From Paracoccaceae bacterium (GTDB lineage: Bacteria; Pseudomonadota; Alphaproteobacteria; Rhodobacterales; Rhodobacteraceae), in contig JAKITO010000020.1 in the NCBI GenBank assembly GCA_021648025.1, positions 1 to 52,893 of the forward strand: a stretch of DNA of 52,893 bases, in the 5' to 3' direction. The notes beneath the pieces are model-generated. The model did no database searches, was not told the origin of the DNA, and saw only the letters and a program-made list of their open reading frames with translations. A program made the position numbers and the translations under genes. Of this stretch, positions 4,242-22,384 are shown piece by piece (the first letter of the stretch is position 1; each line of letters begins with the position of its first letter).

Positions 4242-4242
4242 C

Positions 4243-5094: not shown

Positions 5095-5208
5095 CCGCGT
5101 CTGCCTGCCCCGTGCCGCGCGTTCAAATTCTGGCCATTTTGGCCCGAGAAACCGCGGAATTTTCTTGAATTACCTGCAATCGGCCGGGTGCCATGGTGCC
5201 CGACCAGA

Positions 5209-5235
5209 CGGCGGCGCGATCCTGTCGCGCCGCCG
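5209..5235. other. Strong hairpin downstream of livJ
   Basis: A perfect 11-base-pair inverted repeat (CGGCGGCGCGA / TCGCGCCGCCG) with the five-base loop TCCTG, starting nine bases past the livJ stop on the minus strand. There is no clear U-tract after it. It most likely protects the livJ message or partly terminates before livH. Confidence 0.6.
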
Positions 5236-5243
5236 GGGTTGGT

Positions 5244-6527: not shown

Positions 6528-6570
6528 TTTTTCCCCCTGTTTTGTTGGATAGATGTTTTTTTTCGTATCC

Positions 6571-6581
6571 TGTATACAGTA
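6571..6581. promoter_or_regulatory. Predicted GntR operator, site A (livJ promoter)
   Basis: The sequence TGTATACAGTA, inside the wider CGTATCCTGTATACAGTACA, centred on the palindrome CTGTATACAG. The same 11 bases occur at 13450 and 18795, each time in a promoter gap of this locus. AT-rich palindromes with a central TATA/GTAC-like step are typical for FadR-subfamily GntR regulators, and such a gene lies at 18921. Binding is inferred. Confidence 0.7.
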
Positions 6582-6671
6582 CACGAAGGCAATATTCTGT
6601 CAACAAGCCTGGCACTTTGGGTTCTTTGAATGCCCGGGGAATCCCATTCGCCGGTTGTGCGGCATCAGTGT

Positions 6672-7085
6672 TCAGTCAAATTCGATCACGCCAAGCGGGT
6701 CGTGAATGATTGCATCGACCGATATTTCGACCATCATTCCGGGGGTTGTCAACCCGGCTTCGACCGCGGTTGTGACTGGTAAAATACCGTCGAACACTTC
6801 GCCATGGGCTTTGACAAACCCGGCCGCTGCGGCCTTCATATCGGAAAGAAAAACGGTTGTTCGCACTACGTGGCGCATGTCCGCGCCCACCTCTTTCAAC
6901 GCATTTTCAATCCGCTGTAGCGCAAATATTGTCTGCGCATACGCATCATTGGGGGCGTGCAGCTTGCCGCTTGGTTCTATCGCCGTAGTGCCCGCAACAA
7001 ACACAAACGGGCCAACCCGCTTGGCCCGCGAATATGATCCGATCTCTTCAAAGCGGCCACCGGATTGGACAATCCGCAGGGTCAT
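6672..7085 (-). CDS. RidA/YjgF family protein (enamine/imine deaminase), last gene of the microcompartment operon
   Basis: A 137-residue RidA-superfamily protein. Family features are the early FVFVAGTTAIEPSG segment, HVVRTTVFLSDM, and the C-terminal PGMMVEISVDAII. RidA proteins form trimers and hydrolyse reactive enamines or imines, releasing ammonia and a keto acid; some members act in amine or nitro-compound catabolism. The canonical catalytic Arg of the RidA subfamily (in the IxxxxxRxT-type strand) is not obvious at the C-terminal position, so it may belong to an Rid2-7 group. Its start overlaps the stop of the dehydrogenase gene (ATGA). Position in the operon suggests clearing an imine formed during amine oxidation. 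Confidence 0.88.
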   Translation of the reverse strand: MTLRIVQSGGRFEEIGSYSRAKRVGPFVFVAGTTAIEPSGKLHAPNDAYAQTIFALQRIENALKEVGADMRHVVRTTVFLSDMKAAAAGFVKAHGEVFDGILPVTTAVEAGLTTPGMMVEISVDAIIHDPLGVIEFD

Positions 7086-8269
7086 TTCAGACCTACCCGG
7101 ATGCGAATCGCATCGGCGGCAGCATGCAGTGCGGCGTGTTCGGTATCGGCAAGGGATAGTTGTTCAACCTTGACCAACCCGCTTTGGCCCAGATGGGCCG
7201 GGACGCCCAGAACCACGCCGTTGACGCCAAATTCGCCTTCCAGCATGACCGATACAGGCACAGGCCCAGTGCGCGCACCGCGAATATGATCCAGCAGTTC
7301 GACCGTGGAATGCGCCGGAGCAATTGTCGCCGATCCGGTCTTGCGCAGGGCCACAACCTGCCCGCCACCAGTGATGGCATCCCTCACGCAGGCTTCAATC
7401 TGCGCCTGGGTCAGGAAAACATCCAATGGTCGCCCCTTTATGCGTGCATGCGACGGAATTGGCGCCATTTCATCACCGTGACTGCCCAGAGTAAACGCCG
7501 TAACATCGCCGGGATCAACCCCGGCTGCCTGCGCCAAGGCATTGCGAAACCGCGAAGAATCCAGCGTCCCTGCCATGCCCAGAACCCGCTCGCGGGGAAA
7601 CCCTGTGGCGCGCAACATCTCGACGGTCATTTCGTCCAGCGGGTTGGTCACGACGATGACGATCGCGCCGGGGGCCTGAGATTTGATCGCCTCGGCGGTG
7701 GAATGGATCACCCGTTTGTTGGTCTCGATCAGGTCGGCCCGGGTCATCCCCGGACTGCGCGCGCGCCCTGCCGTGACGACGATAACCTCGGCCCCTGACA
7801 CCATGTTCAGTGACGTACTCCCGCTTACTCTCGCGCGGGTTCGGGTGATGCCACTGGCATGGTTGAGGTCCAGCGCCGTTGCTTCGGCCACGCCGGGTGC
7901 GATATCAATCAGGGCGATTTCATCCGCCATATCGGCGTTGGCGGCAAGGTGGGCAATGTTGCTGCCAACGCCGCCCGCACCGACCAACGCGATTTTGCTG
8001 AAGCGTCTGGCATTGAGAGAAGTTCGTTTCCCGGGGGCCACCCATTTAGCAGAGCGGCGGTAAAGGGCGCGCCGCATGGAAGTGGCGCCATCGCTGCGCA
8101 CGGGCGCTGGCGTTTCCAACGGCCCGTCAAGCAGTTTGATGCCGATCCGCGCCGCCGCTTCGCGGGCTAAGGCCGTGACGATATCACCGGGCAGAACTTC
8201 GAATACAAGGCGTCCGCGTTGACGCGTGTCCTCGATCAGTTCCGACCCTATGACGCGCGATCCGGCCAC
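7082..8269 (-). CDS. LDH-like malate dehydrogenase with microcompartment-type N-terminal extension
   Basis: A 395-residue protein with two parts. Residues about 91-395 are a lactate/malate dehydrogenase: Rossmann motif GAGGVGSN (97-104), GRARSPGMTR (168-177) with Arg at the malate-specific position 171, Asn209 in NPLDEMT, the LDSSRFR Asp237/Arg240 pair, and GSHGDEM with catalytic His264. All catalytic residues look intact, and the Arg favours oxaloacetate/malate. Residues about 20-50 (core LPGDIVTALARE) resemble the N-terminal LTPSARE-type segment of microcompartment proteins such as EutT. An Arg-rich linker (66-84) joins the two. GTG at 8269 follows the BMC-T stop directly. Inferred role: NADH reoxidation inside the shell, in place of an alcohol dehydrogenase. 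Confidence 0.82.
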   Translation of the reverse strand: MAGSRVIGSELIEDTRQRGRLVFEVLPGDIVTALAREAAARIGIKLLDGPLETPAPVRSDGATSMRRALYRRSAKWVAPGKRTSLNARRFSKIALVGAGGVGSNIAHLAANADMADEIALIDIAPGVAEATALDLNHASGITRTRARVSGSTSLNMVSGAEVIVVTAGRARSPGMTRADLIETNKRVIHSTAEAIKSQAPGAIVIVVTNPLDEMTVEMLRATGFPRERVLGMAGTLDSSRFRNALAQAAGVDPGDVTAFTLGSHGDEMAPIPSHARIKGRPLDVFLTQAQIEACVRDAITGGGQVVALRKTGSATIAPAHSTVELLDHIRGARTGPVPVSVMLEGEFGVNGVVLGVPAHLGQSGLVKVEQLSLADTEHAALHAAADAIRIRVGLK

Positions 8270-8899
8270 CTAGGCGGCCTTTCCGTCTATTGCTTCTACC
8301 GCGGCCACCGCGGCCTCCATTCCGGCCTTGACCGAATCTTCCGAGCCGGAAATGAACAACCGGCCATACCGGCCCACGGCGCGGACTTCGACGATGTCGA
8401 TATCGGATGCCTTTTCGGCCTCATTCGCGGCGATGGAAATATAGGCGGCAGGCGCGCATTCGATGATGCCAAGCGTCTGGCCCGGCACCAACAACGCGCC
8501 CTTGCGCCATTTGTTCAGTAATTGCGCCTGATAGGGTTCCACCGATGTGATGATCTGGGTGGTGCCGATATGTGGCTTGAGCCGGTCGGCCATGGTCGCG
8601 CCAAGCTCGGCCAGAATGGCATCGCGGGCGGCGGACACTTCGGCGTTTGAACGCGACCGCAGGATGAAAAACCCGAACTCGCGTTCCACCAATTGCGTCG
8701 TCGCCTCGACCGAACTGGCCTTTAGCGCCCGGTCAATCAGGGTGAAAACCCCGTTGCCGGGGGCAAATTCGCCGATCAGCACGGTGTCACCCGAAAGTGG
8801 CACCGAGCCTTGCACGGTTGCACCGTTATAGGCGGCAAACTTGGGTTGCAGATTGTCGATCTGCATCAGGGCGCGAATGGTTATGTCGCTGCTCATCAT
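8270..8899 (-). CDS. Bacterial microcompartment shell protein, tandem-domain trimer (BMC-T)
   Basis: Shell protein of 209 residues containing two BMC domains. The second is clear: LGIIECAPAAYISIAANEAEKAS, with the NEA-KAS helix, followed by IVEVRAVGRYGRLFISGS. The first (about residues 6-98) is more divergent (GDTVLIGEFAPGNGVFTLID...). BMC-T proteins form pseudo-hexamers, often with gated larger pores. ATG 8899 follows the aldehyde dehydrogenase stop (TAAATG) with GGGAG upstream. It is the only BMC-T in the window; with one BMC-H and one BMC-P it makes a minimal three-component shell. Confidence 0.88.
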   Translation of the reverse strand: MMSSDITIRALMQIDNLQPKFAAYNGATVQGSVPLSGDTVLIGEFAPGNGVFTLIDRALKASSVEATTQLVEREFGFFILRSRSNAEVSAARDAILAELGATMADRLKPHIGTTQIITSVEPYQAQLLNKWRKGALLVPGQTLGIIECAPAAYISIAANEAEKASDIDIVEVRAVGRYGRLFISGSEDSVKAGMEAAVAAVEAIDGKAA

Positions 8900-10279
8900 T
8901 TAACTCCCGTATTCTTTGTAAATGTCGCGCCAGGGTCGGCTTTGATACGCCACCCGTTTGATATTGATCAGATGCAGGGCGGTGACATTGTCCGAGGTGA
9001 TCGACCCCGACCATGTGCCGGTGCCCAGCATGAAACTGGGTTCAAGATCGGTGGAATAGCCCATGCCACCCAGGATTCCCGGCGTATTGACCAGAACCCG
9101 GCCCGTAGGCACGGCGGCAAATTGCGCGACGATTGCCGGGTCGTCCGAGTGGATCACCGAGGAATGGCCCCAGCCTTCGAATTTGGCGATATTGTGCGCA
9201 ATTTCAATGCCCTCATCGCTGGTTCGCGCCTCATAAAACGCCAGTACCGGATTCAGCTTTTCTGCCGACAGGGGCCGGTGCCAACCTATTTCGGTTTCCT
9301 CGGAAACCAGACACCGGGTCCGGGGCGGGATCGAGAAACCGGCGGCGTCGGCCAAAACCTGCGGCGATTGGCCGACCCGCTCGGGGTTCATGGCCTGTTT
9401 GCCGTTGAAAATCACACCCGCCAAACGATCAGCCTCGGCAGGCGTGCAGAAATACGCGCCCTTCAGTTTCAACTCGTGGCGCAGATCACGGGCAATTTCA
9501 CGGTCGGCGATGATCGCCTGTTCCGAAACACAGGCCGTGCCATAGTCAAACGCTTTGGACATGACGATCATTTCGGCCACTTCGCCGATGTCGCCCTTTT
9601 TGGACTTGTGAACATAACACGGCACATTGCCGGCCCCCACGGCCAGCGTCGGTTTGCCCGAAGAATACGCCGCCTTGACCATCGCCGGGCCACCCGTGGC
9701 CATCACCACCGAAGTACGCCGGTGGCGCATCAATTCTGCCGTGCCTTGGATTGTCACCTCTTCCAGACATTGGATCAGCCCCTTGGGCGCGCCCATCTGT
9801 TCGGCCACATCCGCCATGATCCGCACGGTTTCAATGCCACAGCGAACGCCGCGCGGGTGGGGCGCGCAAACGATGGCATTGCCGGCCTTAACCGCCGACA
9901 GAACCTTGAAGATGATGGTCGAGGTCGGGTTGGTCACCGGGACCAGTGCCGCCACCACGCCCATCGGTTCGCCAAAGGCGGCGATTTTGGTGGTCTCGTC
10001 GCTCCATAACATGCCCAATGTGGTCACATCGCGCAGGTAATCCGCCACTGAAAGCGCGTTGAACAGGTTCTTGACCCGCTTGTCTTCGGCATTGCCGTAT
10101 CCGGTTTCTTCCACCGCCAATTGCCCCAGCCGCAAGGCCTCAGGCTCAATCGCGCGGGCCATGGCATCGACAATGGCGTCGACTTGTTTGGGGTCAGTAC
10201 CCAGAAAGGCGCGGTATGCGTCAAACGCAGTTTCGGCGCAGCGACGGGCGGCGGCGATTGATTTCAGGTCTGCGTCCAC
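8900..10279 (-). CDS. CoA-acylating aldehyde dehydrogenase, EutE/PduP family
   Basis: Converts an aldehyde, NAD+ and CoA to acyl-CoA and NADH; it is the core enzyme of metabolosome-type microcompartments. It is 459 residues. The catalytic Cys is about residue 250 in FDYGTACVSEQA, the acylating-class form of the motif; NPTSTIIFKVLSAVKAGNA (117-135) is the conserved cofactor region. GTG at 10279 has GGAGGG upstream and overlaps the opine-dehydrogenase-like gene by 16 bases. The protein begins at the catalytic fold and ends WRDIYKEYGS. I see no clear amphipathic encapsulation peptide at either end, unlike typical PduP. The aldehyde is unknown. Confidence 0.93.
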   Translation of the reverse strand: MDADLKSIAAARRCAETAFDAYRAFLGTDPKQVDAIVDAMARAIEPEALRLGQLAVEETGYGNAEDKRVKNLFNALSVADYLRDVTTLGMLWSDETTKIAAFGEPMGVVAALVPVTNPTSTIIFKVLSAVKAGNAIVCAPHPRGVRCGIETVRIMADVAEQMGAPKGLIQCLEEVTIQGTAELMRHRRTSVVMATGGPAMVKAAYSSGKPTLAVGAGNVPCYVHKSKKGDIGEVAEMIVMSKAFDYGTACVSEQAIIADREIARDLRHELKLKGAYFCTPAEADRLAGVIFNGKQAMNPERVGQSPQVLADAAGFSIPPRTRCLVSEETEIGWHRPLSAEKLNPVLAFYEARTSDEGIEIAHNIAKFEGWGHSSVIHSDDPAIVAQFAAVPTGRVLVNTPGILGGMGYSTDLEPSFMLGTGTWSGSITSDNVTALHLINIKRVAYQSRPWRDIYKEYGS

Positions 10280-11484
10280 ACCCGTGTCCCTCCTGCAATT
10301 GTGTCCATCACCCGGCGGGCGCTGTCAATGTCGCTGGCCTCAATGCCGATTGTGTCCAGCCGCCGGCCTGCGGCGGCGACATCCGCGCCCAGAATGCTGG
10401 AGGCCAGTGTGACCATCGACTGTGTCACCGGCACGTCAATTCCGGCCAGCTTGGCGGCGGAAATCAACGGCACAAACGAACCGATCACCCCATCGCGCAT
10501 CAGGATATTCGCAGCCTTGCGGTCGGGAATACCCCGCGCGCCAGCGCCGCGCAGCGCGCCCGCCTGGGTCCGCACCCAGCTATCTGTATCCGGCAGGTTT
10601 CGCAGGCCAAAGGCCTGCGCCACCAAACGCCGCTCCTGCGCCAGCCGCTCAATCACCGCCCGGTGCTGTGGCCCAATGAGCGACGCGAATGTTTCATTTT
10701 CATCCAATGGAACTCCACCCATCGGCACCGGCGCGCCAGCGCCCTCCAACCCCGGACCACCCAGCAACAAAGCAGGTAGTTCCACCAAGGCCGAGCCATC
10801 GGCAAAGCCGCTTTCCAGCACCGATGCCTGTTCCACAAGATCAGGTAAATACCGCGCCAGCCCACGCAACACATCCGAGCGCCCGCGAGGCAAGGTCGCG
10901 GCAGCGACCGGGCCAACAGCGGAAAGCGTCAGCGTAGCGCCAGTTTCAGAAATCCAATAAGGCAGCCCCTGTGCCTCAACCAAAGTGATATCCGCCTTGC
11001 AGCCGCCGATGCGCAGCATCCAGGCCGCTTCCAGCGCACCCAAAGACCGCCCCGGGGCCAGAACCAACACCTGACCATCACGCAGATGATCCGCCAGAAC
11101 CATCGCATAGGTGCGCATTTTATGCACCGGACCGGTCAGGAAAATCACATCGGCCTTGGCAACGGCCCCGTCCAATTCGGCGGTCGTGCGAATTGATGGC
11201 GCAGAATCCGGGCCGGCATCGCGGTCCACCGCATAGGTGCCAACCGGCCCGTCACCGCGAATGGTCACGCCGCTTGAGGCACGCAACATCTGCACCTCGG
11301 CGCCGTAGGCCGAGAACAACGTCACATCCGCGTCCGCCGCCAGGCACAACGCCGCCAAAAGCCGCCCTTCGACCCCGCCACCAAGCACCGCAACACGGGA
11401 CAAGTCAGGCGTGTTCACCGCCACTCTTGCCGCGCCGCTTGCTTTAGCAACCGCCTCTGTGAAATCCTCAAATCCGCCAGCCAT
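10264..11484 (-). CDS. NAD(P)-dependent opine dehydrogenase-like protein in a microcompartment operon
   Basis: A 406-residue protein of the octopine/nopaline dehydrogenase superfamily, divergent. The Rossmann motif is VAVLGGGVEG (31-40). The mid-region LVEAQGLPYWISETGA resembles the family's EtqtLPYxxR segment, and the C-terminal GSFVPLISAAKLAGIDVPVT resembles the helical-domain block that closes over the keto acid. Residues 4-21 (FEDFTEAVAKASGAARV) form a possible amphipathic helix followed by a short linker (NTPDLS), as encapsulation peptides do. ATG 11484 has AAGGAG upstream. Opine dehydrogenases reductively couple an amino acid with a keto acid, or the reverse. Here it could cleave or form an N-substituted amino acid, or recycle NADH. 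Function is inferred. Confidence 0.7.
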   Translation of the reverse strand: MAGGFEDFTEAVAKASGAARVAVNTPDLSRVAVLGGGVEGRLLAALCLAADADVTLFSAYGAEVQMLRASSGVTIRGDGPVGTYAVDRDAGPDSAPSIRTTAELDGAVAKADVIFLTGPVHKMRTYAMVLADHLRDGQVLVLAPGRSLGALEAAWMLRIGGCKADITLVEAQGLPYWISETGATLTLSAVGPVAAATLPRGRSDVLRGLARYLPDLVEQASVLESGFADGSALVELPALLLGGPGLEGAGAPVPMGGVPLDENETFASLIGPQHRAVIERLAQERRLVAQAFGLRNLPDTDSWVRTQAGALRGAGARGIPDRKAANILMRDGVIGSFVPLISAAKLAGIDVPVTQSMVTLASSILGADVAAAGRRLDTIGIEASDIDSARRVMDTIAGGTRVWTQT

Positions 11485-11503
11485 GGACCCGCTCCTTTAA
11501 AAC

Positions 11504-11818
11504 CTAGCCTGCCGACCCGGCCCCAAGTGCTTCAATAATGCCTTCAAGTTCATCATGCGGGCGGGCGATGACGTGAACCGACACCACATCGCCGATCTTG
11601 TTGGCCGCCGTAGCACCTGCGTCTGTTGCCGCCTTGACGGCCCCGACTTCGCCGCGCACCAATGTGGTGACCAGACCGCCACCGGCCTTGGTCTGTCCGA
11701 CGATTGTCACGCTGGCCGCTTTGACCATTGCATCCGCCGCCTCGATCGAGGCCACAAGACCACGGGTTTCGATCATTCCAAGGGCCGTCTGGCCCGCTGC
11801 TGGTTTTGCCATTTTCAT
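11504..11818 (-). CDS. Bacterial microcompartment hexameric shell protein (BMC-H)
   Basis: Single-domain shell protein (Pfam BMC, PduA/EutM/CcmK type), 104 residues. It has the canonical opening [20 protein letters not shown], and the pore loop KAGGG at residues 44-48 followed by [20 protein letters not shown]. Hexamers tile the facets; the Gly-rich loop lines the central pore through which substrate enters. ATG 11818 has AAAGGAA upstream. It sits between BMC-P and the opine-dehydrogenase-like gene in the same operon. Confidence 0.96.
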
Positions 11819-11833
11819 GTTCCTTTTCAGAAG

Positions 11834-12109
11834 TTACTTGTTCTTTGAGAGTGTTATGTGTTCGACAATCGCAACGATGCTTGCATCAATCGGCACCCCC
11901 GCCAGCCCGGCGGGCAATCGCGCGCCGGACCCGTGTACAATCATCACCGTATCGCCAACCCCGGCACCACAGGTGTCAGCGGCAACCAACGATGGTTCCA
12001 GCACCTTGCCAGCCCCGTCAACAATGTCGCACAACAACAGCTTATGACCGGTAAGTTGGGCGTCCTTGGCCGTGGCTGTAACTGTGCCAATGACCCGTGC
12101 GACCCGCAT
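11834..12109 (-). CDS. Bacterial microcompartment pentameric vertex protein (BMC-P, EutN/CcmL family)
   Basis: Shell vertex protein of 91 residues, the normal EutN/CcmL length. Family features: MRVARVIGTVTATAKDAQLTG, HKLLLCDIVD, the conserved AADTCGAGVGDTVMIVHGS core (usually D-GAGxGe-V) and the terminal IDASIVAIVEHI strand. Pentamers cap the icosahedral corners. Its ATG shares a base with the stop of the glutamine-synthetase-like gene (TGATG), so ligase and shell are translationally coupled. That is strong evidence that glutamylation chemistry belongs to this compartment. Confidence 0.95.
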   Translation of the reverse strand: MRVARVIGTVTATAKDAQLTGHKLLLCDIVDGAGKVLEPSLVAADTCGAGVGDTVMIVHGSGARLPAGLAGVPIDASIVAIVEHITLSKNK

Positions 12110-13404
12110 CAGAAATTATCCCGATAGCGGTCAATTTCCACCTGCGTCACCTGCTGGGAAAAGAACTCCAACTCGCGTTCGCTTTGTTGACAGGCCAGTT
12201 CCCACATGTCGTCGCCCATCACATTCTTGAGCCAGTCTGACCCGCGCGCCAGTGCAATTGCATCGCGCAGATCCGTGGGAATTGGGGCGGCATCTTCGGC
12301 CTCATAGGCGTTGCCGGTGGTTATTTCAGAAGGTTCGATGCCCTGTTCGATGCCATCCAACCCGGCGGCAATGTCACTTGCCAGCAGGAAATACGGATTG
12401 CAATCGGCCCCTGCATCGCGCTTTTCCACCCGCACGGCGCTGTCGGACCCTTCGATCACCCGCAGGCCAACGGTGCGATTGTCCAACCCCCAGGTCGTGT
12501 TGATCGGACAAAAGGTATACGGCTGACGGCGACGATAGCCGTTGACCGTGGCACTGCCGCAAATCGACGCTTCGGCCATGCGCTTTTGCATGCCGCCAAC
12601 AAAATGACGGCCCGTATCGCTCAGCTTGCCGTTGTTGGAAAATACGTTCTTGCCGTCTTTCCAAAGCGAATAATGGCAATGAAACCCGCTGCCGGATTCC
12701 TCATGAAACGGCTTGGCCATAAAGGTCGCCTTGTATCCGTGCGCGCCCGCCAGTTGCTTGGCCAGTGAGCGGAACATAACCACCCGGTCGGCCGACAGCA
12801 AACCTTCGTCGTAACGTATATTCACCTCGACCTGACCGGCCGCGTATTCGGGGTTGGACTGTTCGATCGGAATGCCACATTCGTTGATCTGGGTGCGGAT
12901 CGGGCCAAGTACATGCTCAAGCTCTGCTGCCCGCTCAAGCCCATAAACCTGAATACCGGAATCCTTCGGCTTGCCGGTTTCGGGATCAAGCAGGTAAAAC
13001 TCCAGTTCGGCCCCGACCTGCACCTCGAATCCCATGTCGGCGGCGCGCTTCACCTGACGCTCCAGTACCGGGCGCGGGTCAATCGGCACTTGTTTGTGAT
13101 CCATTCCCTCGGCGCGGGCAAAACACATGGCGACACCCGGCTCCCACGGCAGGGAGACCGGTTTGGTCATCGGGAACATATGCATATCGGGATAGCCGTT
13201 GCCGAAATTGACATAAGGCGTGTCCCAGACATCGCAGGTCATATCAATGGCAAACAGGGCCAGCGAATAGGCATTGCCGTTATTGCAAATATTCTCCCAG
13301 TGGCTGGCCGGAATACGCTTGCCGCGCATGATGCCGTTCAGGTCCCCAAGGCCCAGAATTACCGTATGCGTACCCTCGGGTAACGTGAAATCAGTTGACG
13401 TCAA
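12109..13404 (-). CDS. Glutamine synthetase-like gamma-glutamyl-amine ligase (GMAS/PuuA-type), first gene of the BMC operon
   Basis: ATP-dependent ligase of the GlnA superfamily, 431 residues, likely joining glutamate's gamma-carboxyl to an amine rather than making glutamine. Metal/ATP site residues are visible: GAELEFYL (Glu133, Glu135), NPEYAAGQVEVN, and FHEESGSGFHCHYSLW. The DGSS ammonia-pocket loop of true glutamine synthetase is replaced by NFGNGYPDMHM, as in gamma-glutamylmethylamide and polyamine synthetases. TTG at 13404 is chosen: GGGAGG lies seven bases upstream and covers the alternative TTG at 13419. Its promoter carries operator site B and is shared with a divergent flavoprotein. 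The amine substrate is unknown. Confidence 0.85.
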   Translation of the reverse strand: MTSTDFTLPEGTHTVILGLGDLNGIMRGKRIPASHWENICNNGNAYSLALFAIDMTCDVWDTPYVNFGNGYPDMHMFPMTKPVSLPWEPGVAMCFARAEGMDHKQVPIDPRPVLERQVKRAADMGFEVQVGAELEFYLLDPETGKPKDSGIQVYGLERAAELEHVLGPIRTQINECGIPIEQSNPEYAAGQVEVNIRYDEGLLSADRVVMFRSLAKQLAGAHGYKATFMAKPFHEESGSGFHCHYSLWKDGKNVFSNNGKLSDTGRHFVGGMQKRMAEASICGSATVNGYRRRQPYTFCPINTTWGLDNRTVGLRVIEGSDSAVRVEKRDAGADCNPYFLLASDIAAGLDGIEQGIEPSEITTGNAYEAEDAAPIPTDLRDAIALARGSDWLKNVMGDDMWELACQQSERELEFFSQQVTQVEIDRYRDNF

Positions 13405-13449
13405 GATGCAACCTCCCAATTGCTTATGGTCTTGCGTTTAGTTGTATTC

Positions 13450-13460
13450 TGTATACAGTA
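13450..13460. promoter_or_regulatory. Predicted GntR operator, site B (BMC operon / flavoprotein divergent promoter)
   Basis: TGTATACAGTA identical to sites A and C, in the wider TATTCTGTATACAGTATTC. A further half-site AATACAG follows at about 13468. It lies 46 bases upstream of the ligase start and about 59 bases upstream of the flavoprotein start, so one regulator could control both directions. Confidence 0.72.
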
Positions 13461-13518
13461 TTCAAAAATACAGTCAACAGCGCCAGAACAACACTAAACA
13501 ACAAGGACGATTTTGATC

Positions 13519-14658
13519 ATGGCACCCAGCAACATCATTGTCGTGGGCGGTGGTATTGCCGGTACGATGACGGCGCTTGAACTTCAGCGCAAGGGTGAAC
13601 AAGTCACGCTGATTGACCGGTGGGAGCCGGGGCATTCACGCGCCTCATCGACCGATTACAACCGGGTGATCCGGGCGATTTCTGGGCGCGATGAATTTTA
13701 TACCCGCTGGGCCCGTGAAAGCCGGTTGCGGTGGTTGGAATTGCAGGCCGAAAGCGGCCAGAACCTGATGTACGAATGTGGTGCCTTGATTCTGGCAAGC
13801 GAGGGTCACTGTGATTGGGAAGACGCCACCAGTCAGACGTTCGATACTGTTGGCGTGCCCTATTTCAAATACTCGCAATCGGAAATTCAGCAGCGTTTTC
13901 CGCAGTTTCGCGTGCCCGACATCGCCTATGCATTGTTCGAACCCGAGGCGGGCATGCTGATGGCGCACCGCTGTGTCCTGACCTGCATCGACCTGTTCAA
14001 ACGCGCGGGCGGGGTGGTGAAACGCGGACGTGTCACCACCGACGGGTCCGAACGCCCGATGCTTGATGGCAAACCGCTTGAGGCGGATGTGATCATCATC
14101 GCCACGGGGCCGTGGATGTCCGAAATGTTCCCGCGCACCATCAAACCGATCACTACGGTGATTGGCGTCAATGTGATCTATACCTCGACCCCGGATGGGT
14201 CGGATGCTTTTGACATGGAAAACATGCCCTGCTGGATTGATCACGGCAAAAGTTCGTTTGGCCTGCCATCCTCTGAGGGTTCGGGCGTCAAGGCGGCGGT
14301 GGTGATCCCCGACAAGATCGACCTTGATAACGACGAACGCCTGATCCGGCGCGAATGTCTCAGCCGCACCCGCAGCTATATCCAGCACCGGTTTCCGGGG
14401 TTGGTGGGCGAAAAGGTGGTGGATTCAAAATTCAACCAGATCATCCTGACGCCAGACACGCATTTCATCGTCGACTGGCATCCCGAGCATGACAATGTTC
14501 TGTTCGCGGGGGGCTGCTCGGGGCATCTGTTCAAACATGCGCCCGTATTCGGCAGCTTTGTGGCCGGGGTCGCGGTTGGGGATTATGGTACGGCTGACCG
14601 GTTCAAGGTTGCCGGGCGGCGCAAGCTTAGCCCAAAAGAAAGCCCCTCAGGACGATAA
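13519..14658 (+). CDS. FAD-dependent amine oxidoreductase, monomeric sarcosine oxidase/DAO family
   Basis: Flavoprotein of 379 residues that would oxidise a secondary or glutamyl amine, releasing an aldehyde. The FAD dinucleotide motif is VVGGGIAGTMTALEL (8-22) with an acidic LID at the strand end. The C-terminal block LTPDTHFIVDWHPEHDNVLFAG, then GCSGHLFKHAPVFG, matches the sarcosine oxidase/N-methyltryptophan oxidase/PIPOX layout. The Cys that carries covalent FAD five residues before TPD is replaced (Asn about 306), so FAD is probably non-covalent. ATG 13519 has AAGGA upstream. It is divergent from the microcompartment operon with operator B between, and it overlaps the 3' end of the DUF6455 gene by 12 bases. 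Confidence 0.87.
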   Translation: MAPSNIIVVGGGIAGTMTALELQRKGEQVTLIDRWEPGHSRASSTDYNRVIRAISGRDEFYTRWARESRLRWLELQAESGQNLMYECGALILASEGHCDWEDATSQTFDTVGVPYFKYSQSEIQQRFPQFRVPDIAYALFEPEAGMLMAHRCVLTCIDLFKRAGGVVKRGRVTTDGSERPMLDGKPLEADVIIIATGPWMSEMFPRTIKPITTVIGVNVIYTSTPDGSDAFDMENMPCWIDHGKSSFGLPSSEGSGVKAAVVIPDKIDLDNDERLIRRECLSRTRSYIQHRFPGLVGEKVVDSKFNQIILTPDTHFIVDWHPEHDNVLFAGGCSGHLFKHAPVFGSFVAGVAVGDYGTADRFKVAGRRKLSPKESPSGR

Positions 14659-14988
14659 TTCAGCGTATTGGGCCGCATTCGGGCAGTCATAAGGATCAAA
14701 CTCGCCTTCATGTCCGGCCAGAAATGCCTTGCATTCCTTGGTCTTTTCACAGGTTGTACAGGCCCAGACAATCTCTAAGGCGCGCCAGCGGGTGGCGTCG
14801 ATGACTTTGCCGGTAACGCCGAAATGCGCAGCCATCGCCTCCATCTGGTTGCGCACCCCGGGGCGGGCATTGGCAAATGTTGCAATGTCTTCGCGCGTAA
14901 CCGCCAGATCGGCGCACAGCCGGTCAAGTTCCTGCGGTGTCAGTATCCGCCTGCGAGCCCTGTCAAACAGCCCTAGTAATCCAGTCAT
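14647..14988 (-). CDS. Small Cys-motif protein, DUF6455-like
   Basis: A 113-residue protein. The C-terminal half carries four Cys in the pattern CTTCEKTKEC ... YDCPNAAQY, which suggests a metal or redox site. I recognise it as DUF6455-like, a family common in Rhodobacterales and of unknown function. ATG 14988 is preceded by GGAGG. It follows the class I amidotransferase after 59 bases and is probably the last gene of the glxBCD-like operon. No function is assigned. Confidence 0.75.
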   Translation of the reverse strand: MTGLLGLFDRARRRILTPQELDRLCADLAVTREDIATFANARPGVRNQMEAMAAHFGVTGKVIDATRWRALEIVWACTTCEKTKECKAFLAGHEGEFDPYDCPNAAQYAELSS

Positions 14989-15047
14989 GCGGTTTCCCTC
15001 CTGATACCCACGCTAAAGTCCGAAGGATTGCACGACTTTGAGGCAGA

Positions 15048-15740
15048 TCAAGTTACTGGCGCGCTGCGCAGTAATTTGGCCACCTCTTTCGCCATCAGAT
15101 CAACCGGTACGTCGCCAGAGGCAACTGACGCCAGCCGGTCTTTGGTCTCGGCGGGGGTTTGGGCAATGCCTTGGTTTTTGGTGATCGCATGGGTGAGAAA
15201 CGCAGCCGTGAATTCCGGGTGGAATTGCACCGACATGGCCGGGAAATCATAGGTCAGAACGCCAAGCGGACAATAATCAGCCCTGCCCAGAACCCTGGCG
15301 CCGGGTGGTGCTTTGGTCACCTGATCGCGGTGCCAGACATGGGCATCAACAACTTGTCCATCCACTTCAAAGCGCCGCACCCCAACCACTTCGCCCAATT
15401 CCGCCAATTCGGCCTTGCCGCCATAAACCTCGGCCATGAATTGATGCGCAAAACAGATGCCGAAAACCGGGGTTTTCCGCGCTTTTGTTTCCAGCAACAG
15501 GGCGCGCACCGGGGCCATCCAGGGCGCGGCGTCGTAAACGCCCTTTTCCGAGCCGCTTAGTACAAAGCCATCAAAGGTGCCGACCTGGGGCACCGGCACG
15601 CCAGCGGTCACCTCAATTATCGTCAATTCATCCCCCGGCATTGCCGGGGCCAGCCAATCACGGATTGCACCGCCCACAAGGGCGCCGCCCCCGATTTCCT
15701 CGGGCAGGTCAGTCAGGTTCAGAATGGCAATCCTTACCAT
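15048..15740 (-). CDS. Class I glutamine amidotransferase domain protein
   Basis: GATase class I protein, 230 residues. The catalytic triad is visible: Cys96 in FGICFAHQ, His174 and Glu176 in QFHPEF. Relatives hydrolyse glutamine or act as gamma-glutamyl hydrolases (PuuD-like proteins remove gamma-glutamyl groups, though PuuD itself is a distinct subtype). In this setting it could release glutamate from a gamma-glutamylated intermediate, but that is inference. Its start overlaps the glxD-like stop by seven bases, so it is co-translated with the glutamate-synthase-like set. Confidence 0.85.
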   Translation of the reverse strand: MVRIAILNLTDLPEEIGGGALVGGAIRDWLAPAMPGDELTIIEVTAGVPVPQVGTFDGFVLSGSEKGVYDAAPWMAPVRALLLETKARKTPVFGICFAHQFMAEVYGGKAELAELGEVVGVRRFEVDGQVVDAHVWHRDQVTKAPPGARVLGRADYCPLGVLTYDFPAMSVQFHPEFTAAFLTHAITKNQGIAQTPAETKDRLASVASGDVPVDLMAKEVAKLLRSAPVT

Positions 15741-17155
15741 TCGTAGACTTTGTCGATCCCGGCCATCTTGACGCCGGTAAAGGCCGACGCCTGAAACGAC
15801 AGGGCGCGCAGGTCTTCAACCTCAAGATTGTGCACCGAAGACTTGCCGCAGGCCTTGGCCAATGCGGTCATCTCCATGGTCATCGCCGTCAGATACCGCG
15901 CCACCCGTTCGGCGCCGGCAGCGGGGTTCATGCGCTTTTCAAGCTCAGGATCCTGCGTCGCGATCCCCACCGGACAACGCCCGGTATGGCAATGGTGGCA
16001 CGCGCCCGGTGATGTTCCAAGCGCCTCATAATCCTCAAGATATTGCGGTGAATTGCACCCCGCCGCAATCATCGCGCCATTGCCGATCATCACCGCATCC
16101 GCACCAAGCGCGATGCACTTGGCCGCGTCCACACCGGTGCGGATACCACCCGCCACCACCAATGACACCTTGCCCGACATGCCGCAGTCGTCCAACGCCT
16201 CGCGGCCCGCGCGAATTGCACTCATGGTGGGCACGCCGGTATGGTTCAAAAGCATCTCGGGCGACGCCCCGGTGCCGCCTTCGGCCCCGTCCAGCACAAT
16301 CACATCCGCACCCGCCTTGGCCGCCACGGCCACGTCGAACCGGGGCCGGGTCGCACCCATCTTGATGAAGATCGGCACCTGGTAATCAGTGGCAATGCGC
16401 AGTTCTTCGATCTTAACCGCCAGATCATCCGCCCCCAGGAAATCCGGGTGGCGGATGGTTGATCGTTGATCAACCCCTTCCGGAAGGGTCCGCATCTTGG
16501 ACACCCTCGGGCTGACCTTCATGCCCAAAAGCAAGCCGCCGGTTCCGGGCTTGGCCCCCTGACCCACGACAATCTCGATCCCGTCGGCGCGGCGCAGATG
16601 GTCCAAATCAACGCCGTAGCGCGCCGGCGACATCTGATACACCAAAATCCGCGAGGCTTCGCGTTCTTCCTCAAGCATCCCACCTTCGCCGGTGCAGGTC
16701 ATGGTGCCCACTTTGGATGCGCCGTATCCCAGCGATGCCTTGGCCGGGGCCGACAAGGCACCAAACGACATCGAGGCGATATAGATCGGTATTTTCAGCT
16801 TGATCGGCTTTTCCACCAGGCCGCGCCCGCCGCCCAGAATGGTCGTGGTATCACAGGTTTCACGGTACCCTTCCAACGGCAGCCGCGTCATGGTGGCCGG
16901 CACAAAGGTCAGATCATCAAAGGTCGGCAATTGCTGGTTGAACGAGTTATAGCCGCGCACCTGATAGCGGCCCAATTGCGCCAATGCGTGGACCTCGGCA
17001 ATCGAATCCGGATCCCAGCGGGCCGACCCGCCTTTGGTATACGACGATGGCACACCGGCGGGGCGACCTTCAATGGCGGCTTCGCCAAATTTGATCTCGT
17101 CCTCGCTGGCCATCTCAAACGGGTATTCATAAGGTTTGTTCAGATCATGAGCCAT
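15734..17155 (-). CDS. FMN-binding glutamate synthase-like large domain protein (GlxD/MgsC-like)
   Basis: Stand-alone FMN/Fe-S synthase domain of glutamate synthase, 473 residues. Features are IASMSFGALSAPAK, GEGGMLEEER, GQGAKPGTGG, the FMN-phosphate region VIVLDGAEGGTGASP and VAGGIRTGVDAAKCIALGAD, and the Cys cluster CHHCHTGRCPVGIATQD. With a separate amidotransferase and GXGXG subunit it forms the architecture of N-methylglutamate synthase (MgsABC) and GlxBCD. MgsABC makes N-methylglutamate from methylamine and glutamate. Here the amine may differ. It overlaps the upstream gene by 16 bases. Confidence 0.9.
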   Translation of the reverse strand: MAHDLNKPYEYPFEMASEDEIKFGEAAIEGRPAGVPSSYTKGGSARWDPDSIAEVHALAQLGRYQVRGYNSFNQQLPTFDDLTFVPATMTRLPLEGYRETCDTTTILGGGRGLVEKPIKLKIPIYIASMSFGALSAPAKASLGYGASKVGTMTCTGEGGMLEEEREASRILVYQMSPARYGVDLDHLRRADGIEIVVGQGAKPGTGGLLLGMKVSPRVSKMRTLPEGVDQRSTIRHPDFLGADDLAVKIEELRIATDYQVPIFIKMGATRPRFDVAVAAKAGADVIVLDGAEGGTGASPEMLLNHTGVPTMSAIRAGREALDDCGMSGKVSLVVAGGIRTGVDAAKCIALGADAVMIGNGAMIAAGCNSPQYLEDYEALGTSPGACHHCHTGRCPVGIATQDPELEKRMNPAAGAERVARYLTAMTMEMTALAKACGKSSVHNLEVEDLRALSFQASAFTGVKMAGIDKVYEW

Positions 17156-17832
17156 GCGTTTGCATCCCTGCTTTCAAAATACCAAAGTCGCTGACCCGAG
17201 ATCATCTTGCGCCAGTCGCGCGATGTATCCACCAGCCCCAAAGGCGCCAAAATCGCGTCCACCTCGGCCACTTCTTCGGCGCTCGGCTCCACCGTGTTCA
17301 CGTCGACACCAACACTTTCAACCGGACCTGCGACCCAGACTTCACCTTCCCACAAGGCATCAGCACAGCTTTCGCCGGCCCCGCCCAGGGCAATGATCCG
17401 CCCGGAATGCGCCATGAAACCGGACTGATAGCCGATCTTGCCTTCGACCACGATATTGCCACCCTTCATTGCGGCACCAACCCGCGGGCCGGCATCACCT
17501 TTGATGTGGATGGTCCCGCCCATCATTGCCGCACCGCACGACATGCCGCAATAGCCGCCGACGGTGATCATGCCATCCGACATGCCTTCGCCCAGCGCCC
17601 AGCCGGCGTTGCGTTCGATGTTGATGGTGGCACCCGTGTTCAAGCCGCCACAGAAATAACCAACCGAACCCTCAAAATGCAGGTCGGCACCCGGCGGCAG
17701 GCCAATCCCAAGGTTATGGCGTGACAGGGTGTTGGTCACCCGCATCCTGTCGCCCGCCTTGGCCGCTGCCTGCATATCCTGATTGATCTCGCGGATATGA
17801 CGCTGGCTGACGTCGATAATGACTTCGCTCAT
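17140..17832 (-). CDS. Glutamate synthase GXGXG-domain subunit (GlxC/MgsB-like)
   Basis: A beta-helix GXGXG protein of 230 residues, matching the C-terminal domain of glutamate synthase. Repeating turns are visible: GSVGYFCGGLNTGATINIERN, GGYCGMSCGAAMMGGTIHIKGD, AGPRVGAAMKGGNIVVEGKIGY. It acts structurally, linking amidotransferase and FMN domains. It forms an ATGA overlap with the amidotransferase gene and a 16-base overlap with the FMN subunit, so the three are produced together. Confidence 0.9.
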   Translation of the reverse strand: MSEVIIDVSQRHIREINQDMQAAAKAGDRMRVTNTLSRHNLGIGLPPGADLHFEGSVGYFCGGLNTGATINIERNAGWALGEGMSDGMITVGGYCGMSCGAAMMGGTIHIKGDAGPRVGAAMKGGNIVVEGKIGYQSGFMAHSGRIIALGGAGESCADALWEGEVWVAGPVESVGVDVNTVEPSAEEVAEVDAILAPLGLVDTSRDWRKMISGQRLWYFESRDANAWLMI

Positions 17833-18773
17833 GCGGCAAGACTCCGGTTACCGACGCCCCAGATGCCCATCAGGCTGGGACCGTCGTGATTGATTACATC
17901 TTCTTCGCCGGCAAACACACGGCGCACTGCCTGTTCTTCGGTCGCTACTGCCAGATCGCCATTCTTGTCGATCACCACCAGTGGTTTCATCGCGAACCGG
18001 TCCTTGGCAAAGCCGATGCCGTCGGGGCGGGCAATCATATAGGTGAACACACCGTCAATCGAGGTGATGGATTTGCGCAAGGCCTGGCTCATGCTTAGCC
18101 CCGCCTTGATCTGATCCGAAACCCAGACCGCAATCAGTTCGGAATCGTTTCCGGTCAGAAAACGATAGCCCCGCCGCTCAAGTTTTTCGCGCCAGGTGAA
18201 ATAATCGGTGATCTGGCCGTTATGCACAATCGCCACGTCCGAAAACGGCCGGGCCCAGAACGGGTGGCTGGCATTGGGCAACACGGAACTTTCCGTGGCC
18301 AGCCGCGCATGGCCAAGCCCGTGGGTGCCGATCATGTCGCGCACCCCGTGTTTGTCGGCCACATCCGTAGCACTGCCAATGTCTTTGATAATCTCCAACG
18401 ACCGCCCGCAGGACTGGATTTCGATCCGGTCGGTCAGGGTATCGGCGTCTTTTACCCAGGCCGTCAGGTCGGTTGGGTCGCTGATTTCCATGCGAAAACA
18501 ATAATGTGCGTTTTGATCTGTGGTGATCTGCGGCTCACTCAGGAAATCCGAACCATGGTCGCGCATCACATGGGTAAAACTGGCCAGATCACCGTCCATC
18601 GACGATTTGTCAAACCCCATGCCGCGTAAGGTATAGCCGGTTTCGCGGGGCACCGTGTAGATCGCAAAGCCGGTACTGTCGGCCCCGCGATGCCTTTGCG
18701 CATCCATCAATTCGACCAGATCGTGCCCGACCTTGCCCGGCGCATTCAGAATCCGACCAGCGATTCCACACAT
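17829..18773 (-). CDS. Class II glutamine amidotransferase subunit (GlxB/MgsA-like)
   Basis: Ntn-type glutamine amidotransferase of 314 residues. Cys2 after the initiator Met (MCGIAGRIL) is the nucleophile exposed on Met removal; QRHRGADSTGFAIYT and VAIVHNGQITDYF are the conserved substrate loops. It releases ammonia from glutamine for the partner synthase, or in MgsA-type complexes supports amine exchange. It is the first gene of the operon, with AGGAG before ATG 18773 and operator site C 22 bases upstream, divergent from the GntR gene. Confidence 0.92.
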   Translation of the reverse strand: MCGIAGRILNAPGKVGHDLVELMDAQRHRGADSTGFAIYTVPRETGYTLRGMGFDKSSMDGDLASFTHVMRDHGSDFLSEPQITTDQNAHYCFRMEISDPTDLTAWVKDADTLTDRIEIQSCGRSLEIIKDIGSATDVADKHGVRDMIGTHGLGHARLATESSVLPNASHPFWARPFSDVAIVHNGQITDYFTWREKLERRGYRFLTGNDSELIAVWVSDQIKAGLSMSQALRKSITSIDGVFTYMIARPDGIGFAKDRFAMKPLVVIDKNGDLAVATEEQAVRRVFAGEEDVINHDGPSLMGIWGVGNRSLAA

Positions 18774-18794
18774 GAGATTCTCCTAGAAAGTGTG

Positions 18795-18805
18795 TGTATA
18801 CAGTA
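18795..18805. promoter_or_regulatory. Predicted GntR operator, site C (glxB / gntR divergent promoter)
   Basis: TGTATACAGTA identical to sites A and B, extended as TGTATACAGTATAC, with a further CGTATTCAG half-site at about 18809. It is 22 bases upstream of the glxB-like ATG, where a bound repressor would block transcription. It supports autoregulation by the adjacent GntR protein. Confidence 0.72.
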
Positions 18806-18859
18806 TACCGTATTCAGCAATGATCAAGGCAATTCTTGATAACCGGCTTTATTGTACTC

Positions 18860-18870
18860 TGGATTCAGGA
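18860..18870. promoter_or_regulatory. Possible degenerate GntR operator, site D (gntR leader)
   Basis: TGGATTCAGGA matches the 11-base element at 8 of 11 positions and is followed directly by a second half-site GGATACAG. It lies about 50 bases upstream of the gntR start. Weaker than sites A-C; it could be an autoregulatory site. Confidence 0.4.
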
Positions 18871-18920
18871 TACAGAAGACTCAGCAAATTCATGCACAAA
18901 TTCATGCCAAGAGGCCCGCA

Positions 18921-21175: not shown

Positions 21176-21333
21176 GTGGCGTCCTTGACCTTGTTTTACC
21201 GTGCGATTCTATCTTGCCGGAACCGTCCATAACAGTAACATCAAACAAACAGGCAGAAGTCATCAAAAGGGAAGGGATATTCCCGAACCATCTTGAAACA
21301 GTGAACTGACAAACAAACCCTGGGAGAGAACTC

Positions 21334-22341: not shown

Positions 22342-22359
22342 CCGGAAACTGAATGCGTG

Positions 22360-22384
22360 GCGTCCCGGCCCCGGTCCGGGGCGC
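22360..22384. other. Intercistronic hairpin after the NMT1-type binding-protein gene
   Basis: Inverted repeat GCGTCCCGG / CCGGGGCGC with a 7-base loop (one T-G pair), starting 19 bases after the binding-protein stop and before the ATPase gene. No T-run follows on the plus strand. Likely mRNA stabiliser or partial terminator giving excess binding protein. Confidence 0.5.

What the first reader, a model, noticed from the sequence alone, without database searches (positions are those of the whole stretch)
6672..18773. Microcompartment locus built around glutamate-amine chemistry
Seen: BMC-H, BMC-P and BMC-T shell genes in one operon with an acylating aldehyde dehydrogenase, a glutamine-synthetase-like ligase, an opine-dehydrogenase-like protein, a malate-dehydrogenase-like protein and RidA. 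A sarcosine-oxidase-type flavoprotein diverges from it, and an MgsABC/GlxBCD-like operon plus GntR lie next to it. Known: MgsABC and GMAS act in the N-methylglutamate pathway; acylating aldehyde dehydrogenases define metabolosomes. Inference: an amine is loaded on glutamate, oxidatively released as an aldehyde and converted to acyl-CoA inside the shell. I know of no characterised microcompartment with this set. It may correspond to an uncharacterised metabolosome class.
Basis: partly seen in the sequence, partly recalled or inferred. Interest (0 to 1): 0.93.

Follow-up and report, generated by a model that had tools for sequence, protein, structure and literature searches.

The report
Microcompartment fed by glutamate-loaded amines
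[quoted passage not shown] the same gene set recurs in many related genomes, and our literature searches did not turn up a described organelle with it.

Summary
An eight-gene operon (6672-13419, minus strand) encodes a GS-like ligase, BMC-P, BMC-H, an opine-dehydrogenase homologue (OpDH), a CoA-acylating aldehyde dehydrogenase, a CcmP-like BMC-T, a malate-dehydrogenase homologue and a RidA-fold protein. A sarcosine-oxidase-type flavoprotein (DAO) diverges from it; an MgsABC operon with a GntR gene and a Liv-type ABC transporter flank it. The block is complete and colinear in 50 of 50 assessable loci.

New evidence ties the parts into one pathway. The same MgsC subtype (80-96% identical) is in 21 of 21 genomes checked, also where it lies elsewhere. 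One palindrome (CTGTATACAG) stands before the shell operon, the MgsABC operon and the transporter; 106 of 108 TGTATACA sites in 1.15 Mb sit at these units. Four genomes without shell genes keep the ligase but use ordinary oxidising enzymes, which points to a short alkylamine.

Best reading: an N-alkylglutamate-fed metabolosome; OpDH, with a predicted N-terminal encapsulation helix, would release the aldehyde. Substrate, enzyme order and encapsulation are inferred. It may already sit, without function, among the catalogue's MIC types, whose supplementary tables I could not open.

The parts
1862..6584 (-). Liv-type ABC transporter: periplasmic binding protein (5244-6584; true start probably downstream of the GTG at 6584), permeases 4243-5094 and 3294-4262, ATPases 2566-3327 and 1862-2566
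   Evidence: binding protein nearby in 45 of 50 assessable loci
6570..6579 (.). palindromic operator CTGTATACAG in front of the transporter
6672..7085 (-). RidA-fold protein; no Arg at the place recalled as catalytic Arg105 of RidA
   Evidence: motif recalled
7082..8269 (-). malate/lactate dehydrogenase homologue with a conserved N-terminal extension of about 90 residues; predicted to re-oxidise NADH
8270..8899 (-). BMC-T shell protein, closest solved chains CcmP and HO-5816 (double-stacked, gated pore by homology)
8900..10279 (-). CoA-acylating aldehyde dehydrogenase, acetaldehyde type (TIGR02518 best model, under its cut-off), without the C-terminal part of that model
10264..11484 (-). opine-dehydrogenase homologue (OpDH) with N-terminal amphipathic helix; candidate aldehyde-releasing signature enzyme
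11504..11818 (-). BMC-H shell protein
11834..12109 (-). BMC-P shell vertex protein
12109..13419 (-). glutamine-synthetase-like ligase, predicted gamma-glutamyl-alkylamide synthetase; real start probably a few codons downstream of the TTG at 13419
13449..13458 (.). palindromic operator CTGTATACAG between DAO and the shell operon
13513..14658 (+). flavoprotein of the monomeric sarcosine oxidase / N-methyltryptophan oxidase type (DAO); Arg/Arg/Lys/Lys of the MSOX active site kept, covalent-FAD Cys replaced by Asn
   Evidence: residue roles recalled
14647..14988 (-). DUF6455 protein, matches in 17 of 64 loci
15048..15740 (-). class I glutamine amidotransferase-type hydrolase (GAT1), matches in 30 of 64 loci, one of them weak (28%)
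15734..17155 (-). MgsC-like FMN subunit (glutamate synthase domain)
17140..17832 (-). MgsB-like GXGXG subunit
17829..18773 (-). MgsA-like class II glutaminase subunit, Met-Cys N-terminus
18794..18803 (.). palindromic operator (GTGTATACAG, one mismatch) between GntR and MgsA
18852..19583 (+). GntR/FCD regulator, candidate binder of the palindrome

Best explanation
The locus encodes the shell and core enzymes of a bacterial microcompartment of the metabolosome kind, which is predicted to burn a short-chain primary alkylamine (likely C2 to C4) after loading it on glutamate. Shown: the shell genes, the acylating aldehyde dehydrogenase gene, the conserved gene block, the co-occurrence with one MgsABC subtype and the shared palindrome. 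Inferred, in order: the Liv-type transporter imports the substrate; the GS-like ligase makes gamma-glutamyl-alkylamide; MgsABC moves the amine to the alpha nitrogen, giving N-alkylglutamate; this carrier form enters through the gated CcmP-like BMC-T; OpDH, held in the lumen by its N-terminal helix, oxidises the N-CH2 bond with NAD+ (DAO would do the same with FAD, in the lumen or as a second entry), and the imine falls apart into aldehyde and glutamate; the aldehyde dehydrogenase makes acyl-CoA; the malate-dehydrogenase homologue re-oxidises NADH with oxaloacetate. The GntR regulator would sense an intermediate and control all three units.
For: Gene block complete and colinear in 50 of 50 assessable loci; DAO on the opposite strand in 59 of 59 loci that show it, in one of them (L077) about 5 kb away. 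MgsC adjacent in 31 of 48 loci and one MgsC of this subtype in 21 of 21 genomes searched, next paralogue at most 57%. In a sample of 292 genomes of the order OpDH is in 4 and this MgsC in the same 4 plus one; in all four the two genes are linked, so this sample alone is weak. Palindrome CTGTATACAG: 4 matches with up to one mismatch in the window against 0.18 expected, three of them before the shell operon, the MgsABC operon and the transporter; TGTATACA in 46 of 57 DAO-GS, 22 of 32 GntR-MgsA and 15 of 38 RidA-transporter gaps; 106 of 108 sites in 1,145,942 bases lie at these units. In 14 fetched MgsABC operons that are not adjacent to the shell genes, GTATAC stands within 80 bases upstream of MgsA in 14 of 14 and a GntR orthologue is divergent in 12 of 14. 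Shell-less relatives, BMC domain in 0 of 4: three keep MgsABC + ligase + RidA with a flavin amine oxidase and an ordinary aldehyde dehydrogenase, one of them with a CoA ligase; the fourth has no MgsC match at E <= 1e-60 but the same kind of transporter (71-76%) and ligase with P450, GATase, a transaminase over the AptA cut-off and a PuuC-like aldehyde dehydrogenase, which reads as oxidation of an otherwise plain alkyl chain. OpDH N-terminal helix is amphipathic (moment 0.53, 0 of 500 column shuffles as high; 44 of 62 rows used). DAO keeps the MSOX residues at the places recalled for carboxylate binding and O2 activation. The MDH homologue keeps the Arg pair of malate dehydrogenases.
Against: No activity, shell or growth phenotype is known here. 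OpDH has Glu in place of the residue recalled as catalytic His of opine dehydrogenases, so its reaction is uncertain. Two enzymes (OpDH, DAO) could make the aldehyde, and OpDH plus AldDH would both yield NADH against one NADH-consuming enzyme. The aldehyde dehydrogenase has no recognisable encapsulation extension. RidA lacks the recalled catalytic Arg. MgsABC is not next to the shell genes in 17 of 48 loci. TGTATACA itself is missing from 11 of 57, 10 of 32 and 23 of 38 of the three gaps. Simple amines are unusual ligands for Liv-type binding proteins (recalled). The OpDH helix is in the low-confidence part of the fold model.
Confidence: 0.6

Rival explanations
1. Same pathway, other division of labour: DAO makes the aldehyde from N-alkylglutamate with FAD, and OpDH runs in the reductive direction as a lumenal NADH re-oxidising enzyme, as octopine dehydrogenase does in invertebrate muscle (recalled).
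For: DAO is as conserved as the shell genes (59 of 59), keeps the MSOX active-site residues, and three shell-less loci have a flavoprotein of the same Pfam family. NADH bookkeeping would close.
Against: DAO has no amphipathic N-terminus in the test used (482 of 500 shuffles as high) and is outside the shell operon; a malate-dehydrogenase homologue is already there for NADH. An aldehyde made outside the shell would defeat its purpose.
Confidence: 0.2
2. Gamma-glutamyl-amide route without N-alkylglutamate (Puu/Ipu-like, recalled): the flavoprotein oxidises the gamma-glutamylamide itself and GAT1 hydrolyses it; MgsABC only recycles nitrogen.
For: GAT1 is a class I GATase as in Puu pathways and has matches in 30 of 64 loci; one shell-less genome (L106) has ligase + P450 + GATase and no MgsC match.
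Against: MgsC is in 21 of 21 shell-locus genomes searched and in three of four shell-less ones, absent only from the P450 version; GAT1 was not found in many loci; an acylating aldehyde dehydrogenase of the acetaldehyde type fits a small free aldehyde better.
Confidence: 0.08
3. Opine catabolism: an imported opine (N-carboxyalkyl amino acid) is oxidised by OpDH; ligase and MgsABC serve nitrogen assimilation.
For: OpDH fold is closest to N-(1-D-carboxylethyl)-L-norvaline dehydrogenase 1bg6 and octopine dehydrogenase; a Liv-type transporter suits a zwitterion.
Against: Ligase (and in L106 the transporter) recur in shell-less loci where no OpDH was matched in the flanks, and G289 has no OpDH match at E <= 1e-50; an opine would give a keto acid, not a substrate of an acetaldehyde-type dehydrogenase; the recalled catalytic His is replaced by Glu.
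Confidence: 0.06
4. Substrate is an amino alcohol (ethanolamine, 1-amino-2-propanol) or methylamine rather than an alkylamine.
For: Short-chain dehydrogenase-like genes (by sequence look) lie in up to nine of the loci; a GmaS prefers methylamine (PMC7948447, passages).
Against: No EutBC-, phosphotransferase- or transaminase-type gene in the operon; formaldehyde is not a usual substrate of acylating aldehyde dehydrogenases (recalled); the P450 version implies an unfunctionalised chain.
Confidence: 0.06

Closest known systems
[quoted passage not shown] PMC8217296: parts 1-4 of 7 and passages)
   Same: Shell genes plus a pfam00171 aldehyde dehydrogenase, no phosphotransacylase in the operon, a malate/lactate-dehydrogenase-type gene as possible NADH recycler (MIC1, PVM). 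MIC3 loci have CcmP-like BMC-T proteins, as this locus does.
   Different: What I read of the main texts describes no amine ligase, MgsABC, opine-dehydrogenase or RidA set. The supplementary locus tables could not be opened, so it may already be listed as one of MIC2-7.
N-methylglutamate (NMG) pathway for methylamine (recalled; GmaS paper PMC7948447, passages)
   Same: GS-like ligase, MgsABC, then oxidation of an N-alkylated glutamate by a sarcosine-oxidase-type flavoenzyme.
   Different: Ligase under the TIGR03105 cut-off (238.1 of 469.6); MgsC only 51-57% to the closest other paralogues; flavoprotein monomeric; the aldehyde would go to acyl-CoA in a shell.
EUT2 / AdhE-type acylating acetaldehyde dehydrogenases
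   Same: AldDH closest to solved 5j78 acetaldehyde dehydrogenase; AdhE among the next.
   Different: No ethanolamine ammonia-lyase in the operon; C-terminal extension missing.
RMM metabolosome of Rhodococcus and Mycobacterium
   Same: Amine-derived aldehyde proposed, GntR regulator (passage); double-stacked BMC-T.
   Different: RMM1 uses phosphotransferase, aminotransferase and short-chain dehydrogenase (passage); none in this operon.
Puu and Ipu gamma-glutamyl amine pathways (recalled); GlnA4 ethanolamine pathway of Streptomyces (PMC6529630, search listing only)
   Same: Amine activated by a GS-like gamma-glutamyl ligase.
   Different: No shell and no MgsABC in those (recalled).

Membership tests
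Bacterial microcompartment | BMC-H and BMC-P genes in one locus | tested here: met
   PF00936 90.6 bits and PF03319 88.4 bits, over cut-offs
Bacterial microcompartment | BMC-T shell protein | tested here: met
   PF00936 43.8 bits; closest solved chains CcmP and HO-5816
Bacterial microcompartment | polyhedral bodies in cells | not testable with these tools
   needs electron microscopy
Metabolosome (complete core) | pfam00171 CoA-acylating aldehyde dehydrogenase | tested here: met
   CoA-acylation by homology
Metabolosome (complete core) | phosphotransacylase in the locus | tested here: not met
   none among the proteins scanned between 1862 and 19583; rest of the genome not searched
Metabolosome (complete core) | alcohol dehydrogenase for NAD recycling | tested here: not met
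   only a malate/lactate-dehydrogenase homologue
Metabolosome | encapsulation peptide on the aldehyde dehydrogenase | tested here: not met
   459 aa, matching positions 1-454 of a 488-position model; no amphipathic N-terminus (351 of 500 shuffles as high)
MIC class of the catalogue | AldDH present, core incomplete | tested here: met
   against the definition in PMC4207490 (passage)
MIC class of the catalogue | identity with one listed type (MIC2-7) | not testable with these tools
N-methylglutamate pathway | GMAS-type ligase (TIGR03105 cut-off) | tested here: not met
   238.1 bits, cut-off 469.6
N-methylglutamate pathway | three-gene MgsABC set | tested here: met
   GATase_6, GXGXG and Glu_synthase domains in overlapping genes; activity untested
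N-methylglutamate pathway | heterotetrameric N-methylglutamate dehydrogenase | tested here: inconclusive
   not among the genes scanned between 1862 and 19583, a DAO of the monomeric type is there instead; genome not searched for it
Opine dehydrogenase | PF02317 over its cut-off | tested here: not met
   26.7 bits, cut-off 30; but the best fold match is 1bg6, TM 0.79 by target length, so kinship is likely
Opine dehydrogenase | catalytic His | tested here: not met
   Glu235, invariant in 19 sequences, in its place by profile alignment; role of the His recalled
EUT | ethanolamine ammonia-lyase EutBC | tested here: not met
   no such family in the operon or flanks scanned

The most novel reading that the evidence does not exclude
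A metabolosome that is fed not with its small volatile substrate but with a carrier-bound form: the amine rides into the shell on glutamate as N-alkylglutamate, an NAD-dependent opine-dehydrogenase relative with Glu for His acts as a new kind of signature enzyme that releases the aldehyde in the lumen, and glutamate returns as the carrier. Shell-less relatives doing the same job with oxidase plus CoA ligase would show the shell to be an exchangeable module on one amine pathway.
Probability: 0.4. Interest if true: 0.86.

Novelty: new variant of a known kind. Interest (0 to 1): 0.74.

Why it matters
Many catalogued metabolosomes have an aldehyde dehydrogenase but no evident enzyme that makes the aldehyde (PMC8217296). 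This locus offers one with a testable answer, in named isolates of genera such as Ruegeria and Sulfitobacter. If right, it links microcompartments to the turnover of short alkylamines, adds a carrier-fed mode of substrate delivery, and gives a natural pair of shelled and shell-less versions of one pathway for asking what the shell is for.

Tried and rejected
Considered and set aside: GMAS identity of the ligase (family cut-off not met); canonical RidA deaminase (recalled Arg absent); EUT, PDU or RMM membership (signature enzymes not among the scanned genes); conserved extra neighbours as a substrate clue (the largest recurring cluster, short-chain-dehydrogenase-like by sequence look, is in 9 loci). 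Literature searches for a described microcompartment with this set gave none; only part of the hits was listed (30 of 965; 15 of 26; 15 of 39); a search on glutamylated alkylamines listed 15 of 35 and was not followed further.

A tree of the ligase was tried three times. In 76 and 77 outgroup rows were partly wrong reading frames; in 80 (39 rows, the shell-locus rows thinned) they were right but on very long branches, so the root is unsure. In all three, the shell-less rows fall as two pairs inside one subclade with the shell-locus rows L054, L071 and L077 (in 76 with one wrong outgroup row as well); whether the shell was gained or lost there is open.

The window's own genome has one MgsC-like gene besides glutamate synthase, and four further GS-like matches, three at 31-34% and one at 32% over half the length. 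Of the 11 genomes of 292 with a PF03319 gene, three without OpDH were fetched (L092-L094); their loci are other BMC types.

The fold model of OpDH has mean pLDDT 74.8 with residues 1-23 under 50; the MDH model 84.8 was not searched against structures. The amphipathy test left out 18 of 62 OpDH rows without a hydrophobic residue at position 5; several of those printed show the same motif shifted by one residue. MDH was not put to that test.


Full report
What is there. The window lies in a 3.46 Mb draft genome; its nearest relative among the fetched loci is L014, titled Paracoccaceae bacterium. On the minus strand, 13419 down to 6672, eight genes follow each other with gaps of -16 to +19 bases: GS-like ligase (PF00120), BMC-P (PF03319), BMC-H (PF00936), opine-dehydrogenase homologue OpDH (PF02317, under cut-off), CoA-acylating aldehyde dehydrogenase (PF00171), BMC-T, a malate/lactate-dehydrogenase homologue and a RidA-fold protein. 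A flavoprotein of the monomeric sarcosine oxidase type (DAO) diverges from it. Then come, on the minus strand, a DUF6455 gene, a class I GATase, MgsC, MgsB and MgsA homologues, and divergent from MgsA a GntR/FCD regulator. Downstream of RidA lies a Liv-type ABC transporter.

How widespread. OpDH has 627 homologues at E <= 0.001 among the 7996 candidates scored, of which 120 were listed. A scan of genome contigs, one genome per species, with an alignment of 19 of these found 64 loci; the record titles name Rhodobacterales-type genera, Hoeflea, Nitratireductor, Ahrensia, Geminicoccaceae, Granulosicoccaceae, Arenicellales, Thiotrichaceae and Chromatiales. In the 50 loci with enough DNA, the eight-gene block is complete and colinear in 50; DAO is on the opposite strand in all 59 loci where it is found, in L077 about 5 kb from the operon; the transporter's binding protein is nearby in 45 of 50; MgsC is within reach upstream in 31 of 48. 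In a sample of 292 genomes of the window's order OpDH occurs in 4, so the locus is conserved but patchy.

MgsABC belongs to it. I searched 21 of the genomes behind the 64 loci for the window's MgsC; among them are 15 of the 17 whose assessable upstream flank has no MgsC. All 21 have one hit at 80-96% identity, and the next hit is 57% or less. In the 292-genome sample this MgsC is found in the four OpDH genomes and in one more, G289; in all four it is linked to OpDH, so that sample alone is weak, and one search is the stronger test. The window's own genome has no other MgsC-like gene apart from glutamate synthase.

One regulon. The palindrome CTGTATACAG occurs at 6570 (before the transporter), 13449 (between DAO and the shell operon) and, with one mismatch, at 18794 (between GntR and MgsA); a fourth one-mismatch site at 45340 is probably chance (0.18 matches expected). 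Across the 64 loci TGTATACA is in 46 of 57 DAO-GS gaps, 22 of 32 GntR-MgsA gaps (GTATAC in 31 of 32) and 15 of 38 RidA-transporter gaps. Of all 108 TGTATACA sites in 1,145,942 bases, 106 lie within 300 bases of a called start of these units (49 at DAO/GS, 28 at GntR/MgsA, 29 at the binding protein; ten of these up to 30 bases inside the called match); the other two are nearest DUF6455. I then fetched 14 of the MgsABC operons that are not adjacent to the shell genes: the nearest GTATAC stands 23-38 bases upstream of MgsA in 13 and 78 bases upstream in one, and a GntR orthologue (47-73%) is divergent in 12 of 14. Binding of GntR to the site is inferred.

Shell-less versions. G289 (L091) and, from a class sample of 385 genomes searched with the ligase, G504 (L104), G313 (L105) and G532 (L106) carry the ligase at 66-70% identity; none has a BMC domain (0 of 4). 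L091, L104 and L105 keep MgsABC, ligase and RidA with a flavoprotein whose best model is AmaA-like (under cut-off) and a non-acylating-type aldehyde dehydrogenase; L091 adds an AMP-forming CoA ligase. So aldehyde dehydrogenase plus CoA ligase would take the place of the acylating enzyme. L106 has the window's own kind of transporter (71-76%) and ligase, no MgsC match at E <= 1e-60, and a reductase, P450, GATase, class III transaminase over the AptA cut-off (642 of 500 bits) and a PuuC-like aldehyde dehydrogenase under its cut-off. That reads as a Puu-like route in which a P450 oxidises a chain end that carries no other group, and AptA-type enzymes act on beta-amino acids (recalled); hence my guess of n-propylamine or isobutylamine, with ethylamine not excluded. 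TGTATACA stands 29-32 bases before MgsA in L091, L104 and L105 and 83 bases before the ligase in L106. No count of how common such versions are was made beyond these samples.

The enzymes. The ligase scores 238 bits with the type III model, 217 with GlnA and 198 with gamma-glutamylputrescine synthetase, below all their cut-offs. GmaS of Rhodovulum accepts ethylamine (Km 58 uM) and propylamine (1.8 mM) besides methylamine (27 uM) (PMC7948447, passages), so alkylamine use by this fold is known. MgsA starts Met-Cys as class II glutaminases do, which would fit release of the amine from gamma-glutamylamide within the complex (inference). DAO aligns with monomeric sarcosine oxidase with Arg-x-x-Arg, the Lys of the GxGxK stretch and the Lys of the GHxFK stretch kept and the flavin-linking Cys replaced by Asn (roles recalled), which would suit an N-alkyl amino acid. 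OpDH folds like 1bg6, with an invariant Glu where that family has its His (recalled). Its first residues (MxxxFxxFxxA) form a conserved amphipathic helix with a linker: moment 0.53 against 0.26 for shuffled columns, 0 of 500 as high, in 44 of 62 rows. The same test gave 351, 287 and 482 of 500 for AldDH, ligase and DAO, and 53 of 500 for RidA. The MDH homologue keeps both loop Arg, Asp, Arg and His of malate dehydrogenases (roles recalled) and carries a conserved N-terminal extension of about 90 residues, modelled in part as a small folded unit. The BMC-T is closest to CcmP, a type predicted to pass larger metabolites (PMC8217296), as an N-alkylglutamate, malate or CoA would need.

Compared with what is known. 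By the catalogue's own definition (passage) this is a metabolosome with an incomplete core. In the main text of the 2021 catalogue (parts 1-4 of 7 read, plus term searches) the whole words amine, RidA and Alphaproteobacteria have no occurrence, and one search counted 'glutamine synthetase' zero times in both catalogues. It names MIC2-7 among the types without an obvious aldehyde-making enzyme. I could not open its supplementary locus tables, so I claim a new functional assignment, not a new locus listing. Of 26 papers holding two of microcompartment, N-methylglutamate and glutamylmethylamide, 15 were listed, and none of those held microcompartment.

Verdict. A real, conserved locus whose parts share one upstream palindrome. 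The glutamate-carried amine metabolosome is the best-supported reading (0.6); the identity of the amine, the aldehyde-making enzyme and encapsulation remain inferences that a few experiments in the named isolates can decide.

Noticed in passing
window 7082-8269, residues 1-90 of the protein: The MDH homologue has a conserved N-terminal extension (RViG.e..edar.rGr...E.lpgDIVT.lA.EtA.R.gi.L.dGPlE) that matches no Pfam family and is modelled in part as a small folded unit; perhaps a docking domain.
   Followed up: partly
L106 1858-16649: Shell-less genome with the same kind of transporter and ligase but a P450-based, Puu-like gene set and no MgsC match.
   Followed up: partly
L091 11526-15818: Next to the shell-less MgsABC operon lies a malonate module: malonyl-CoA synthase, malonyl-CoA decarboxylase and an amidase.
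   Followed up: no
L118 1427-7656: In the genome behind L069 the non-adjacent MgsABC operon sits beside a Liv-type transporter (63-77% to the window's), which that shell locus lacks in its flanks.
   Followed up: no
L024, L035, L037 (about 5.9 and 14.8 kb): Two short-chain-dehydrogenase-like genes each (by sequence look), one on the DAO side and one after RidA; may widen the substrate range.
   Followed up: no
window 20789-24116: By sequence look only, not scanned: a second RidA-like gene (20789-21175) and a separate ABC transporter of the NMT1-like kind (21334-24116).
   Followed up: no
window 45340-45349: CTGTAAACAG, one mismatch to the operator; probably chance.
   Followed up: no
L092, L093, L094: Other BMC types in genomes of the same order with different aldehyde dehydrogenases (30-37% to the window's).
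   Followed up: no
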